From Trichinella spiralis (lineage: Eukaryota > Nematoda > Enoplea > Trichinellida > Trichinellidae), in the NCBI GenBank assembly GCA_000181795.3, contig CM012953.1, forward strand, positions 11,686,691-11,750,690: 64,000 nt of DNA, read 5' to 3'. Below, piece by piece: positions 12,408 to 20,797 of the stretch. The stretch's first letter is position 1. Each line of letters begins with the position of its first letter. The notes under the pieces were generated by a model, which saw only the letters and a program-made list of their open reading frames with translations, did not search any database and had not been told where the DNA came from. The position numbers and the translations under genes were made by a program.

Positions 12408-15400
12408 TCAGTCCAAGTTTGTATCGGCAAACATGCTCGCACCACTCGACTTGCCATCCTTTTTGTTATTATCATCGTCCTTTTTATTATCCGATTGACC
12501 AGAAGGCGAAGTGAACATACTCTGCAACTTGGCCAACATTTTGCTGATCTTCGGATTCGACTGATATTTCAGCAAATTCATAGGATTTTTCTTCACATCT
12601 TCAAATACTCGAATCAATTCTGGATCCTGACAATAATCAATAATGAAAATGTAAAATCAAATGAAATTTTTGAAAAAGTTCATTGAATTCACACACGTTC
12701 ATAGCTTCCATAATTTCTGGATCGGACATGATGTTACCAAAATTAACCCCTGATAAATCTGGCATGTTTCCTCCCATATTTCCTAAAAAATCCTGAAACA
12801 AAACATACAATTAACTTGATAAATTAAAAAATAAATAAATACATTAAATGCTGATTTCAAAAAAAAACAACCATAATTAATTTAAGCAAATTTCACATGA
12901 GAAAAAAAATATGCGTATTTACAGCAAATGGATTGCCAGTTTGGGGTTTTTCATTTTCGGGAGAAGTTGGATTTTTCTTCTTTTCTTCGGCATTTGCAGT
13001 GTTGCTGCGTTCCGATCCACCTCCACCTCTTTGTTGCTGCTGCTGCTGTTTTCGTTCTTGCTTCTTACGTTCTTTTTTACGTTTATGTTCGACAAGTTTC
13101 TTCGCCTGAACAAAACCCACAATCCACCTCTTATTAACAACAATGAAGCAGATTAATCAATCAACTGATTAATTAATAATAAATAGTCATTTTCACTAGA
13201 GAAAAAATTATCTAAAAAAATTTTTTCATCATTACTCAATCAAAAAAAACAAACCATCACTAAGTGAAACAATATAAAAAAAGATTCGTTCAACAAATTA
13301 TTATCTTTCAATAGATGAGACAGATGATAATTTCTTTCTGTTTCACAATTTTTCTCCAATATGCATTAAAATTTTCAAATAAATTCCATGCACAAACACA
13401 CGTCTGGGAAGAAATATTAGATAATATTCTACTTATTATAAACAATTGATTAGAAAAAAAAACAACAACAACATTTGCATGATTGAAAAATACTGCTCAG
13501 CCGTGTGATTGGTAAACAAAGTGAAAATGTTCAAGTTGGTTTTTGCTGTTTTGCAATGCTATTTGCCTACTGCTACTGCTAGCTGCTTCTTCCCAGCAAA
13601 CAGAACGACGACACACTTCGCTTCACTAACATGCAAACACACACACACACACACGAGCACGTCAGAAACAAAGAATCTCAAGCAAAAGAATCCCATTCTT
13701 TATCGGCTGGAACAGCAGAAGTGATATAGTTTATATATTATATATCAGTAGCAGTAGCAGTAGCAGTAGGAATGATAGCAGCAACAGCAACTGCAACAGC
13801 AACAACAGCTTCAATGAAAAGCTAGTCATCTAAAGCTTTTCACATTCTGTCGTCATTGGAAACGAGCAAAAAAGAAAAAGTTGAGCTTTGAAAAGCCGAG
13901 CGAGTTCAGAGCGCCCATTAAAACGACAGCTGCACTGAACCGAGCAACATCAAGACAAGCAACTAAAAATACAACTACGCTCAGATTGGACGTGTTGGGT
14001 TTGTTGTCGAGCTCTTCAAACCCATTCCTTTCCTTTATAATAATTTTCTTTTTCCTGCAACCAATAATCAACTTTCTCTCCCCCCCTCCCACCCTCTCTC
14101 TTAATATCTCTCTCTCTCTCTCTCTCTCTCTGTGTTTTCAAGCTTGTTTTTGCTTTTCAGAACAAGCTTCACTGACGTAAACCGAGCGAACGCGTGCGAT
14201 CAGCGTGTGACAAGCATGAAACATCGTAACAACAAACGGCCCGTATCCAAATTCGAAAATTCCCACCATCACCGGATGTGGTGAATTTGCTCCTCTTCCT
14301 ACTCAGCTTTGCTGAATAAATGACCGAAAAATTTAAATAACCCTCTGAAGACACAGAAACGACGATGCTTGTTGAAACGTTTCACAAAACATCGCTGATC
14401 GCAGCCGTCTGTCATCATCTGCTGCTCCTTTCGACCCTGGTCGACGGAACAGGTAATTAATTGAAAGATCACCTCCTTTTCCACACGACACTATTCCGTA
14501 CATTTAATTATTAAGAAAAACGAATCCACCTCCAAAAAACCAAACCAACATACGGTTCTGCCAAGTCGAAGGAGCTGGCAGATGGCGGCACTGATGAAAA
14601 TCTTCTTCTTCTAGTCGACGACGAAGAAAATGACGACAGCCGGACGACCGTTGAACAACTTCGACGTATTTTTAGCAAAAAAATCAAACCCATCCAAGAC
14701 GAATTTCATTACAACGATTTCAATTCTCACTTCATGACAGGTAAACAAACATAAATTTGCTTGCTCTTCATCGATGTATTCGAATTCTTGTTCCATAGTT
14801 CAATATACTTATTATTATTATTCATTATATCCACCAAATTTTAATGAAATGGATATTGTGACCAGTTGGGAGGAGGAGAGCCAACACCAAAGTAATCTCT
14901 TGTATGGAGAAGAAGAGAAGTGCAGTGGATTATTATATTCAAGCATAATTGTTTCATTTTTCTGCCAAATGTTGATTGAATATTTTTGAAAACCAAATTG
15001 CAGAACGCGACATTGATGCCAAAGCTGTCGTGTTGGTAACGGGACCGGTAGGTTCGGGCAAAACGAGCCTGATCGCTCATCTGCTCGGCATGAAAGTCGA
15101 AGACATTGACGATTCATCACCATCATCATCATCGCAACAATATACGAACGGTAAACTTGTGTAAAACACAAACATTTCGTTGGATACAAATAAAACACGC
15201 CATCGTATATAGATGATGTGAACAATGATGGTCGTGGCGGCATTGGTCGGGGAAAATTCCTCGTTGTCGCAGATGCGTCGGACAAGGGCGTCGGCCGGAT
15301 GGACAGTGGTGATTCGTTGTTGGACGACCGGCATGGACCGTGGTTCGAGTGGTTCGGCCGTTTCGGTCGACAGTTCGTCGAACGGACGAGAACGTTGCGA

Positions 15401-18400
15401 GTGCAGAATCGTCTGCTTCGGCACGTGACGCTGGTCGAGGCGCCGCTTCCGTCGCCAGACCAAAGTGGTCAAAAGGAGACGCCCACGCAGGGGATATTCA
15501 ACGTGTTCGTCGACCGAGCCGACCTGGTGCTCGTCGTGGTCGAGCCGTGGTCGATACCAGTCGGCGAACAGTGGTCGTTCGGTGGGTTGTTGAAGCGCGT
15601 TAGCTGGAAAAAAGCCAACTTTTCGGTCAGCGACCACGACAGCCAGCTTCACCGCCATCGTGTCCGATTGGTCGTCAACAAAGCGGACACGGTGGACGAG
15701 GACCAACTGCGCCTGGCGTTCGGCTCGACAATGTGGTCGCTGGGAATGACGGCATTGGCAGGCGCGGTACCGCCGCCTGTGGTTTACTTCGGCTCATGGC
15801 TCCGAACCACCGAAGACGGTGGCGTTGCCGCCAAATTCCGCCGGGATCACATCCGCTTGACGGACGATCTGCTGATGCTGATCAACAACTGGATGCCGGA
15901 AAAGGTGGCTTCGTTGCGAGAGCACGCGAGCCGTGTAAAAGCGCACGCGATTCTAGTAGACGCCTACGTGCGAGCGTACCGGCGCCGGAAAAGTCTCCTT
16001 TTCGACGACCACGCCCTGGCGCGGTCAATTGTCGACACACCCCTGCGGTTCGGAGTGTACGAGTCGGCAGCTAGCCGGCTGGCCGTAAATCGACTGGGCT
16101 TACAACTCGACACTGTCGACCGAGAGTATGGCGCCTTTTTCGCCCTCCACCCGTTGGTCACCCAACGCGCTCTGAACGACCTCTGCCACTTCCTGTTCGG
16201 CTGCACCAAGATGGACAATCTCCAACAAGCCATCGACGTCGATTTGCCGTTGCTGCAGTCTCATTGGAAAATCAAAAACAAGAATAGCATCAACCGGCCT
16301 CGGATGTCACGTTCACCAACTGCAGAAGAAGATTCGTCGGAAAAAATGTTCACTTACAATGCCACAGCAGCCGCAACGCAAAAGCTTCACCACCACCACC
16401 ACAACAAAACCACCGCCACCACCATCGCGAGTAAGAAGAGAAAAACAATATGCAAAAAAAAATTTTTTTTTGTTTTCTTCATTCACACTACTTTTCTGTT
16501 AAGAAAATATTTCAACGTCAAATTCTGTGAACGATGCCGTCGTGAATGTGAAAAGGAAAAATGGCGTGAGAAAAAAAGAAAAGCAGGTACAAACTACTGT
16601 CCCCTGTCCGAAGTACAGACTCTCCTGTACACCGTCGGAAGACAAGCGTCAAAAGAAAGATGATGCAGATCAGAAGCAGTGTCCAAAGTATAGAATTTCT
16701 TGCAAACAAAATCTGACCGCAAGCAAGCAAGCGCCGTTGCAAAAATCCACCATCCCCACCACGTTACAACGTTGTCCCAAGTACAGGAAAACGTGCAAAT
16801 CAACGCCGGCACCGACTGACACTGCCACACCTTCCGCTGCTCCACCGACCCAGACAACAAAGCATTGTCCAATTTATCGAAAATCATGCAGCACCAAAGC
16901 ACAACAAAGCAGCAGCGGCAACGGAAGGCCAGAGTTGAACAAGAAAAAGCGTCATTGCGTGAAAAAGAGCAGGATGAAAAAGCAGCACATCGAAGAGCAG
17001 CTACGATTGAAAAAAACCAAGAAAACACCGCCCGCGGTTCCGGGGTGCAAAATTTACAGGAAAAGCTGCTCGCCGGCAAAATTGGAACCACCACAAGTGC
17101 AAAAGCCTCGCTGTCCCAAGTACCGCAAGACCGCATGCTCGAACCAAACCCTCACTGCGGCAGTGCCAGCGACCGTGCCGACACCGTCCCTAGCTGGGGG
17201 CACCGAATCTCTGACCACCGGGATAGGGTCCACGAAGCCATGCAACCGTTTTCGACTCTCCTGTCAAAAATTGCTAGCCAATCTTGCTTGACCGATCCGC
17301 CAAATAATTTTACCCGATACCCTGGGGTTTTTTTTCGGACAATTTTCCCTCATCCCCTGAAAATGTATCCTCGTCCAATTGTAATGTTTATCATTTTTAA
17401 ACTCAAACCTATTGTACACTTTCAAAAAGGGGGAATGGAAAAATACAGTTCGATTGAATATTGCAGAACAACAAGAAACACTTTTTGAAAATGAAACGGC
17501 ATTCTTATTATTAGATTTTTTTTCTTTCACAATTAATTCATAATTATAAAAAATAATCTGAAACATGCACAACTTTGTACTGAAGTGAAATTGAAAAATT
17601 TTAAGTCAAAGTAAAGTCGAAAAAATTTTCAATTTACATTCAAAAGCAGAAAACTTACGTATTCTTCAACTTCTTTGAGCCACTCGTAGCATTCTTCGTT
17701 GTAGTCGAGATTGTTGGCCTTGCACAGATCATAGTAAGCATCTTCCCAATGGCCCAGCATCCTTAACCACCACAAAGCCGTAAATGAACGTTTCAATTCA
17801 ACAAAATGCTCACCGATTCGCTTTTCCGCGGTATTTGTAAGCAATGGCGGCGTTCGGATTCAAACGAATCGCCTTGTTGCAATCACGAATAGCTGCCATT
17901 GGCTTTTTCAAATTCACCAACACTCTGAAAGTTATTTCAAAAATGGACAATCTTACAATTGCTGCATACTATATTTGAGAAGAAAAACAAATATGATTTC
18001 TACAACACATTATGTATAATGCTGCAAAAAATTAATATTGAAAAAATAATCTTACCCAGCCCGACGACCGTACAATAAAGTTGACACTGGATTTAAGCAA
18101 ATCGCCTCTGAATACAAGTCCAACGCTTTGTCATAATCCCCTTGAAAGATATAATTTCAAACGTTAAGAAAAAAGCAAAATCAACCTTTTAAATACCGTT
18201 CTTAGCTGCTTCCATTGCTTTCTGCTGTTTCGCATTGGAATTATCAATCATCTCTTCGGTTATCTGAAATATTTCAAAATTGTCCACACCATCAAAGATA
18301 TAATATTGTTTTCAATACTTCGACGTTTTCATCACCAAATGGAAGAAACATTTCGTCTTCGGGTTCCATCACCTTGACATTACTGAATTCTACACAAAAC

Positions 18401-19052
18401 AGATTTAGTGGAAAATAAAAGTAAAATTGGACATTTGAATTCAAATTTGATTTGTCGAGAATCAATGCATACGAAATTGTCTCAACGCGTCTAAAACCAT
18501 TTACACAATAATAATAATAATAATATATACCGTACCCAGTTCTGATTCGGACGAGCTTTCCTCTTCTTGTTCAGCTCTTTCCTGAAGTGAAATGACAATT
18601 ATGAATTATAAACCAGAGAAAATGATATTCCACTTCGAAATCCTACCTGTGCATTGTTAGCAGCGTTGTTGTTTTCTGGCGGCGGAACTGTTGCTCCCAA
18701 ACTAGAAAAAAATAACTGCAATCATGTGAAAAAAACTGAACAAAAATCCAAAAGAAAAATGAGGGGAAAAATTCTCGTTGACGTTGTTGAAAAATGTCAA
18801 CAGTTAATGATCATAATAAATTTTTAACTTGATCAGCTAAATCAAAAGCACAACTATTGGAATGTTGTTCAACAAATTTTATAAATACTGCTGGGAGATG
18901 AGCACTGAAATTATCATACGGAACACAGAAAGCCGATACCTTTCCAAGTATTCTTTGTAGAATGAAATACGCGAATTGTGGAGCAAACTTGGGTATTTCT
19001 TGCACTGTTCCACAAAACTGCGCAGCAAGTTCACTTGTTCCTTAGTGATCAT
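12408..19052 (-). CDS. ST13: Hsc70-interacting protein (Hip, ST13)
   Basis: Hip is a cytosolic Hsp70 co-chaperone that stabilises the ADP state and helps client transfer. About eleven exons run from 19052 to 12408. The N-terminus matches the Hip dimerisation segment ([19 protein letters not shown], then [14 protein letters not shown]). A Ser/Glu-rich acidic linker and GDENVEV follow, then [18 protein letters not shown] and three TPR units ([53 protein letters not shown]). Next is a charged helix ([19 protein letters not shown]). The STI1/DP domain is last ([38 protein letters not shown]). The 4553-base intron between the last TPR exon (ends 17659) and the charged-helix exon (begins 13105) joins in phase 0 and hosts an opposite-strand gene. 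An AG acceptor 11 bases before the ATG suggests trans-splicing or a 5' UTR intron. Confidence 0.93.
13630..14135. repeat. Cluster of microsatellites upstream of the nested gene
   Basis: Three simple tracts are visible: a CA run at about 13635-13655, a GTAGCA run at about 13746-13769 followed by a CAA/CAG-rich stretch to 13810, and a CT run at about 14106-14131. They lie inside the ST13 intron, upstream of the nested gene at 14365, so they overlap its likely promoter. Confidence 0.8.
14365..17291 (+). CDS. Secreted sarcalumenin/EHD-like dynamin-family GTPase with Cys-repeat tail
   Basis: Five exons (14365-14452, 14615-14740, 15004-15150, 15213-16430, 16504-17291), all joined in phase 1, give 788 residues. 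Exon 1 is a signal peptide ([12 protein letters not shown]). A helix with [17 protein letters not shown] matches the segment before the GTPase in EHD and sarcalumenin proteins. The P-loop is [12 protein letters not shown] and the guanine-specificity motif is [18 protein letters not shown], followed by [16 protein letters not shown] and [17 protein letters not shown], all EHD/sarcalumenin signatures. The switch-2 DxxG is degenerate ([10 protein letters not shown]). No EH domain is present. A His/Thr-rich linker leads to seven Cys-pair repeats of the form C-P-K-Y-R-x-[ST]-C (16602 to 17270), set in basic sequence. A luminal Ca2+-store role like sarcalumenin is inferred; no KDEL-type signal is seen. 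The tail has no family I recognise. The gene lies wholly within an ST13 intron on the opposite strand. Confidence 0.82.
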
Positions 19053-20797
19053 CTTTTCGTGCACTGTATTAAAACAAAATTTCACAAATTAATTATCTGG
19101 CTGAACGTGAAATTTATGAAACAACTCTTCATAAAAGTTGAATATAAATGAAAACGAGGTGACTATTTCAAATTTTTAAAATAATCCCTTAACAACATGA
19201 ATCTAATTCTTCTTTTCTACAATAATATAAAATGCACAATTCCCTATTTTCATTGGTAAAAAATTAATCATCGCGTTGTTTTGAGAACTATAATCATCAA
19301 TTGAAAACTGATGAAAACACAATAAATGTTATTTTGTGTAATAATATTAAAAAAAATAAAATTAAATCAAGTGAGATTAAATGAAAGAACTGCATAATGC
19401 GATTAACTGAGGACGATCTAGCCGATAAGATGGTTCTATAGGTATCAATGTGATTTTCATGCTTTAATGCAATGCGTCGATTTACTGTAACATCAAAATA
19501 AGAAAAATATCAAAACTCTGTTTTATCAATAAGAACTTAATCATTGTAAAAATTCTTTAGTAAATTCAGAGTTGTCAAAATTTTCAACTGAATTTTCTAT
19601 TCAACAATAACTAAGTTGTCAAAAAAAATTTTTTTTTTTCGAATACGTTACACAATACATTATAATATTGTTGAAATCTGCTTAAATTTCCAAATAACGT
19701 TGTTATTTCATAACGCAAAGTTTCGGTTCAATATTAATGAAAATGTCATATTTACCAAGATACACAGTAAAATATAATTAGGGATTAAATTTATTTTTCA
19801 AAAAAAGGGAAAAAAGTGTCGACTGTAAATAGGATACGTTAAGATATAAAGCTATTAAAATTGTAATTTAATGTGACAAAATGAACAGAAAATGATGTCT
19901 TTAATTTATTTTTTTGTACAATTTCATTTACTAATTCAAATGAAATACTACTAACACAATCTGTTTTCAGTACAAATAATTGAAGTGAAAGTAGTAAAAA
20001 CGAGGATGTTTCGGTATTTATATTTTTTTCAGTTAATTCAATACTTCAAAATACTGGAATTATTGAATAATTAATCTAAAATGCTAAATGTACGAGAGAT
20101 TATTGTTTTTTAGAAGCTACAGGAAGAAAAAGTTTACTTACAAGTTACAGTTATTGATATTTAATATAATTCAGCCGAATGGCAGAATACAATTTGGTAG
20201 AAAGTGAAATACCGTTAAAGTTTCCCAAAATCATCATAAAAAATACAATACGATTTCAAACACAATTTTCAAAACATAAATATATGTTTTATTAATGAAA
20301 TGGAAACATTTCCTCGACTAATAAATTTTTTAAATGTTAAACGGATATTCACTTCCAGGCATTCTATAAGTTCATCAAATTTTTTGTACGAATATGATCA
20401 ATAAATAAATATATTCAACTGGAAAAAAATATTTTTATGAATATTCAAAGGAAAAAGAAAAAAAAATTCAACATTCTTAAATTTTCATTTGCACATCATG
20501 ATTCATTTTCAAATGCAAAAAATTCACTTCCATGAACAGAAAAGAACATCATTATTATTATCTTGGATAAATAAATGCAGGAATGAATAACATATTATTC
20601 GCAGATAACTGCATTATATAAGGGATGCATTTACAAGTTAAAAAAAACAGCAAAAACTGAAAATGAAGTGTCACGAGGTGATGGTGATGAATAATTAATT
20701 AACAGACAGACTAGCTAGCTGGCTAGCCCGCTATATTTTCAGATTTAATTAAATAAAAAACAAAAACAACATTGCCTTTTCCATGCACCCAAGATCA
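19053..20797. other. Intergenic, no gene seen
   Basis: AT-rich spacer of 1.7 kb between the ST13 5' end and the 3' end of the SR-type gene, both minus strand. Only short chance ORFs. It includes the presumptive ST13 promoter and the 3' UTR of the SR-type gene. Confidence 0.45.

What the first reader, a model, noticed from the sequence alone, without database searches (positions are those of the whole stretch)
14365..17291. Sarcalumenin/EHD-like GTPase fused to a seven-fold CPKYRx[ST]C repeat
The signal peptide, P-loop, NKAD motif and EHD signatures are clear, but the DxxG switch motif is degraded and no EH domain exists. Instead, exon 5 adds seven Cys-pair repeats (C-P-K-Y-R-x-[ST]-C) in a basic context, joined in frame in phase 1. 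I know of no such fusion. Short CxxYRxSC loops could form disulfides or bind metal or nucleotide in a secretory compartment.
Basis: partly seen in the sequence, partly recalled or inferred. Interest (0 to 1): 0.8.

Follow-up and report, generated by a model that had tools for sequence, protein, structure and literature searches.

The report
Trichinella sarcalumenin with cysteine-loop tail
A Trichinella worm gene is predicted to make a relative of the muscle protein sarcalumenin that has lost key residues of its GTP-using switch and carries a tail with seven copies of a short cysteine-paired motif, a combination seen in several Trichinella species whose function is unknown.

Summary
Exons 14365-14452, 14516-14740, 15004-15150, 15213-16430 and 16504-17291 (phase-1 introns) encode 821 aa. 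The genome is Trichinella, by identity with T. spiralis Tsp_01717. The protein is sarcalumenin-like: phmmer 158 bits to whale sarcalumenin, 66 to EHD2; EHD_N, no EH domain. P-loop and NKAD are intact; DxxG has become EAPL and the switch-I PTT is lost. Exon 5 adds a basic tail (net charge +43) with seven C-x-x-[YF]-R-x-[ST]-(A)-C motifs.

Predicted proteins of three other Trichinella species carry the same fusion. Motifs are 56 of 57 residues identical to T. pseudospiralis, linkers 146 of 199, the GTPase region 369 of 430. Synonymous codons among the copies are randomised (67 of 113 pairs differ, 65.8 expected). So the motifs are old or convergent, and kept by selection on the peptide. No other protein or genome place searched has the tail, but those searches were shallow.

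Most likely it is a lumenal sarcalumenin with little or no hydrolysis, whose tail carries disulfide loops as a multivalent binding arm; that role, and the transcript join, are inferred. The gene sits in a 4.55-kb intron of an opposite-strand ST13/Hip gene. New variant of a known kind.

The parts
14365..14452 (+). exon 1: start Met and probable signal peptide
   Evidence: conserved start in P0001 and P0004; signal peptide by eye
14516..14740 (+). exon 2: start of EHD_N helix region; acceptor 14516 chosen because EKRIHLQ is present in P0001-P0004
15004..15150 (+). exon 3: end of EHD_N and P-loop GPVGSGKT
15213..16430 (+). exon 4: rest of GTPase-like domain (DxxG replaced by EAPL, NKAD kept) and sarcalumenin-type helical part with a C-x5-C pair shared with whale sarcalumenin
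16431..16503 (+). intron 4, 73 nt, phase 1; not a multiple of 3
16504..17291 (+). exon 5: basic tail with seven Cys motifs and stop codon; its only Met is tail residue 157, after motif 4 and before motif 5
16605..16628 (+). motif 1 CPKYRLSC
16680..16703 (+). motif 2 CPKYRISC
16773..16796 (+). motif 3 CPKYRKTC
16866..16889 (+). motif 4 CPIYRKSC
17046..17069 (+). motif 5 CKIYRKSC
17112..17138 (+). motif 6 CPKYRKTAC
17241..17264 (+). motif 7 CNRFRLSC
13106..17658 (-). intron of a minus-strand ST13/Hip gene that contains the whole sarcalumenin-like gene (splice ends placed by eye from the translated join)

Best explanation
This is the Trichinella sarcalumenin: a secretory-pathway glycoprotein with an EHD/dynamin-type nucleotide-binding fold. 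It has probably lost efficient hydrolysis (no switch-I PTT, no DxxG) but kept the P-loop and NKAD. In place of the acidic calcium-binding part of long-form vertebrate sarcalumenin it carries a flexible, strongly basic C-terminal arm. The arm holds seven short loops, each probably closed by a disulfide between the two Cys of C-x-x-[YF]-R-x-[ST]-(A)-C and presenting an aromatic-Arg pair. The loops most likely act together as a multivalent binding surface for acidic partners in the ER/SR lumen, or outside the cell. Shown by sequence: gene structure, relation to sarcalumenin, motif losses, tail conservation, saturation of synonymous codons. Inferred: the transcript join, lumenal location, disulfides, loss of hydrolysis, flexibility and the binding role.
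For: The only non-Trichinella hit of the protein search is whale sarcalumenin (phmmer 158 bits; BLASTP 169 bits, 27% identity, residues 71-494), against phmmer 66 bits for EHD2. EHD_N is over its cut-off and no EH family appears. The genome keeps a separate EHD-type gene with PTT, VDTPG and NKAD, so this is not its only EHD-type gene. EAPL stands in place of DTPG in all five aligned Trichinella rows, from four species. The tail has net charge +43 (37 to 39 in P0001, P0003, P0004) and 15 Cys, and sequons NIS, NLT and NQT/NHT recur in the four full-length tails, which fits lumenal exposure. Against T. pseudospiralis: motifs 56 of 57 identical, linkers 146 of 199, GTPase region 369 of 430; Fisher p 4e-6 for motif against linker and 0.003 for motif against GTPase region. 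Motif codons: 67 of 113 same-residue pairs differ, 65.8 expected.
Against: No cDNA, localisation, redox or biochemical data. All relatives are gene predictions. The T. spiralis model P0002 (Tsp_01717) has other exon ends: it drops most of the EHD_N helix, part of motif 1 and part of motif 5, although it still joins exon 5 to the GTPase part. P0003 and P0004 have VTN at the place aligned to the whale PTT, so one Thr may remain there in those species; the alignment is gappy at that point. The AlphaFold model is of very low confidence everywhere (mean pLDDT 30.7, 5 sequences), so neither loops, disulfides nor the GTPase fold are supported by structure. One tail Cys (residue 711) has no partner in a motif. 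No ER-retention signal was seen at the C-terminus (by eye). Only one sarcalumenin from outside Trichinella was available.
Confidence: 0.45

Rival explanations
1. The protein leaves the cell: a secreted Trichinella protein in which the basic Cys-loop tail binds host or extracellular polyanions such as glycosaminoglycans, the sarcalumenin part being a re-used scaffold.
For: Signal-peptide-like start and no retention signal, both by eye; several sequons and tail net charge +43; tail found only in Trichinella so far.
Against: Vertebrate sarcalumenin is described as resident in the SR lumen (PMC10000884, passages). No paper linking sarcalumenin or Tsp_01717 with Trichinella was found; no secretome data set was searched.
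Confidence: 0.2
2. The tail is a redox or metal-binding module: seven Cys pairs sense lumenal redox state or hold a metal and so regulate calcium handling.
For: Cys pairs fixed in four species; disulfide control of ER calcium stores is described for other proteins (PMC7016017, passages).
Against: The motif itself has no His or acidic ligand, and the tail matches no Pfam family. Within each motif the aromatic and Arg residues are as fixed across species as the Cys; the one change is Thr to Ser in motif 6. Redox sensing alone would not need that.
Confidence: 0.13
3. The tail is a precursor that is cut at basic sites into small disulfide-ring peptides.
For: Ring-sized C-x6-C units (C-x7-C in motif 6) separated by K/R-rich linkers.
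Against: KR occurs at only 3 tail positions and RR at none; KK occurs at 8, six of them between residues 146 and 173, so dibasic sites do not flank the motifs regularly; RK occurs at 6, four of them inside motifs. No amidation glycines follow the motifs (by eye). Fusion to a 500-residue GTPase-like body would be unusual for such a precursor (general knowledge).
Confidence: 0.05
4. Exon 5 belongs to another transcript, or the join is an annotation error repeated across species.
For: No cDNA; P0002 uses different exon ends around motifs 1 and 5; the species models may come from one pipeline. Other plus-strand genes in the window were not examined as partners.
Against: Splice sites and phase agree. 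The only Met of exon 5 lies after motif 4, so an ATG-started ORF inside it would hold motifs 5-7 only. The enclosing ST13/Hip gene is on the other strand. The protein reads across the junction in much the same way in P0001, P0003 and P0004.
Confidence: 0.06

Closest known systems
Vertebrate sarcalumenin (whale P0005)
   Same: EHD_N helix, P-loop, NKAD, helical part with C-x5-C; 27% identity over residues 71-494
   Different: Trichinella lacks the PTT of switch I and DTPG, lacks the long acidic N-terminal part seen in P0005, and has a basic C-terminal tail with seven Cys motifs
EHD proteins (EHD2/EHD4 structures; EHD-type gene of this genome at G000:C2)
   Same: EHD_N and dynamin-type nucleotide fold; 66 bits to EHD2
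   Different: No EH domain, probable signal peptide, no DxxG
Deposited Trichinella 'Sarcalumenin' proteins P0001, P0003, P0004 and Tsp_01717 (P0002, 'hypothetical protein')
   Same: Same gene, same tail
   Different: P0002 differs in exon ends; 0 papers were found

Membership tests
Sarcalumenin | EHD_N plus P-loop plus NKAD, no EH domain | tested here: met
Sarcalumenin | closer to sarcalumenin than to EHD | tested here: met
   phmmer 158 bits to whale sarcalumenin, 66 bits to EHD2; only one outside sarcalumenin was available and no tree was built
Sarcalumenin | signal peptide and lumenal glycoprotein | tested here: inconclusive
   hydrophobic start by eye and sequons; no predictor, no localisation
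Sarcalumenin | calcium-binding acidic part (long form only, so not required of every sarcalumenin) | tested here: not met
   tail basic, +43, and no long acidic N-terminal part; the 53-kDa vertebrate form does not bind calcium either (PMC10000884, passages), so this does not exclude membership
Sarcalumenin | SR location and effect on SERCA | not testable with these tools
   needs worm tissue
EHD protein | C-terminal EH domain | tested here: not met
   no EH family in Pfam scan
Active dynamin/EHD-type GTPase or ATPase | switch-I Thr and DxxG | tested here: not met
   EAPL in place of DTPG in all five Trichinella rows; no PTT in P0001, P0003 or P0004, though P0003 and P0004 have VTN at the aligned place
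Active dynamin/EHD-type GTPase or ATPase | P-loop and NKxD | tested here: met
   GPVGSGKT, NKAD

The most novel reading that the evidence does not exclude
Trichinella turned a lumenal sarcalumenin into a non-hydrolysing scaffold with a new kind of polyvalent arm, made of repeated eight-residue disulfide loops that present an aromatic-Arg pair. The arm replaces the calcium-buffering arm, or acts outside the worm in the muscle cell it lives in.
Probability: 0.17. Interest if true: 0.7.

Novelty: new variant of a known kind. Interest (0 to 1): 0.42.

Why it matters
It shows a calcium-store protein that has lost its switch residues in one parasite genus and carries a repeat that is more conserved between species than its GTPase region. 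That makes it a test case for what sarcalumenin does without hydrolysis. The repeat is also a short Cys-pair motif with no Pfam match, with possible roles in the lumen or at the surface of a muscle-dwelling parasite.

Tried and rejected
Acceptors 14582 and 14615 for exon 2: in frame, but the 14516 version is what the other species show. Searches were run with the 788-aa version that uses 14615; the 821-aa version was used and in the scripts.

Second copy of the tail in the genome: the protein search gave 2 matches, the gene itself and one at E 0.06 with three TGA inside. The strict DNA pattern gave 3 matches, all in exon 5. The relaxed one gave 6, 4 in exon 5 and 2 elsewhere that carry an in-frame TGA, against 1 for the reversed control.

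Origin of the tail from the vertebrate sarcalumenin C-terminus (NRYRK): not significant, 227 of 2000 shuffles score as high.

Wider protein searches: the tail search returned 4 proteins at E up to 10 among 1436 candidates, all Trichinella. The search with an alignment returned 4 of 7998 scored candidates at E up to 1e-5, all Trichinella; it did not even return whale P0005, which was in the query alignment, so it is no evidence of absence. These searches need shared exact words, limit length and, scored only the candidates sharing most words. Absence in Trichuris or other nematodes is not shown.

Structure: the AlphaFold model is too poor (mean pLDDT 30.7; some searches returned the same result), so no fold search was made.

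Literature: sarcalumenin with Trichinella 0 papers, Tsp_01717 0 papers, CPKYR with nematode 0 papers. Of I saw listings only (20 of 774, 12 of 32, 10 of 20, 2 of 2 and 10 of 37 papers); of PMC10000884 and PMC7016017 I saw passages.
Full report
Gene and organism. The window lies in a 53.1-Mb genome of 14 contigs. The top four protein matches are Trichinella and the fifth and last is whale sarcalumenin. The window protein is identical to T. spiralis Tsp_01717 (P0002) at 47 of 47 motif, 171 of 171 linker and 407 of 408 GTPase-region residues where both align; P0002 has gaps at 10, 33 and 25 positions. Five exons with four phase-1 introns give 821 aa. The exon 2 acceptor is 14516, since the residues EKRIHLQ that follow are present in P0001-P0004.

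What the body is. EHD_N scores over its cut-off and no EH domain is found. The only non-Trichinella hit of the protein search is whale sarcalumenin, phmmer 158 bits, against phmmer 66 bits for EHD2; BLASTP gives 27% identity over residues 71-494 at 169 bits. A separate EHD-type gene with PTT, VDTPG and NKAD lies on contig 2; its EH domain was not checked. In the window gene P-loop and NKAD are kept. DTPG has become EAPL in all five Trichinella rows, from four species. The PTT of switch I is missing, replaced by a Ser/Asp/Asn-rich stretch; P0003 and P0004 have VTN at the aligned place, so one Thr may remain there. By general knowledge of P-loop GTPases, this should allow nucleotide binding but impair hydrolysis. 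That was not tested.

What the tail is. Exon 5 encodes 261 whole residues with net charge +43, 15 Cys and seven motifs. Of 20,000 shuffles, 0 gave two or more motifs and 9 gave one. Against T. pseudospiralis the motifs are 56 of 57 identical, the linkers 146 of 199 with 5 gapped positions, and the GTPase region 369 of 430 with 3 gapped. Fisher p is 4e-6 for motif against linker and 0.003 for motif against GTPase region. Against T. zimbabwensis the figures are 56 of 57, 155 of 199 and 362 of 430, with p 6e-5 and 0.001. Against T. patagoniensis, a closer species, they are 57 of 57, 194 of 204 and 427 of 433. Among the seven copies (the extra Ala of motif 6 left out), 113 codon pairs encode the same residue and 67 use different codons, with 65.8 expected from random codon choice in this gene (the pairs are not independent). 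The copies are therefore old, or arose by convergence, and are held by selection on the peptide. Spacing is irregular: 25, 31, 31, 60, 22 and 43 residues.

Is the join real? Donor, acceptor and phase fit. The only Met of exon 5 is tail residue 157, after motif 4, so an ATG-started ORF inside exon 5 would hold motifs 5-7 only. The enclosing gene is on the other strand; other plus-strand genes of the window were not examined. The protein reads across the junction in much the same way in P0001, P0003 and P0004. Against this, P0002 uses other exon ends, all are predictions, and they may share a pipeline. cDNA is needed.

Surroundings. The gene lies in a 4,553-nt intron (13106-17658) of a minus-strand ST13/Hip gene. 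Seven open stretches of that strand were scanned. Two gave families over their cut-off: HipN at 18882-19088 and STI1/HOP DP at 12411-12656. The stretch 17813-17968 gave TPR matches below cut-off, but its best matches among solved structures are Hip (4j8d, 4j8f). The HipN stretch also matches a Hip structure (4j8c, E 0.0003). The DP stretch matches only TIC40 at E 0.0044. The other four stretches gave no family over cut-off. The intron ends were placed by eye, from the join reading LKEVEEYAKKLVEHKRKKERK and from recall of ST13.

How specific it is. Tail searches reached only Trichinella (4 of 1436 candidates at E up to 10), and nothing similar was found elsewhere in the genome. A wider alignment search also returned only Trichinella, and missed whale P0005 although it was in the query. 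These searches are word-based and cannot exclude divergent relatives. The deposited proteins of three species are already named Sarcalumenin; three literature searches found 0 papers.

Mechanism. Vertebrate sarcalumenin is an SR-lumen glycoprotein with a calcium-binding insert in its long form and a 53-kDa form that does not bind calcium (PMC10000884, passages); that the insert is acidic is recalled, and the N-terminal part of P0005 is acid-rich by eye. Sarcalumenin and EHD are traced to one progenitor with a dynamin-family GTPase domain (PMC7016017, passages). Here the added arm is basic and Cys-paired, so calcium buffering by it is unlikely. Multivalent binding through disulfide loops is the most economical reading, and it is inferred. 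The AlphaFold model was too poor to help.

Noticed in passing
window 12411-19088, minus strand: ST13/Hip (Hsc70-interacting protein) gene whose 4,553-nt intron (13106-17658) contains the whole sarcalumenin-like gene on the opposite strand.
   Followed up: partly
L016 (G000:C2:2174500-2183000), minus strand: EHD-type gene with P-loop, PTT, DTPG and NKAD, the only EHD_N match that one search reports in the genome (the EHD_N of the window gene is split by an intron and was not hit).
   Followed up: partly
window 16431-16663: If intron 4 were retained, the exon-4 frame stays open to the stop at 16663 and would give a different basic, Cys-containing C-terminus.
   Followed up: no
P0002 (Tsp_01717): The deposited T. 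spiralis model cuts out most of the EHD_N helix and parts of motifs 1 and 5, perhaps a gene-prediction error.
   Followed up: no
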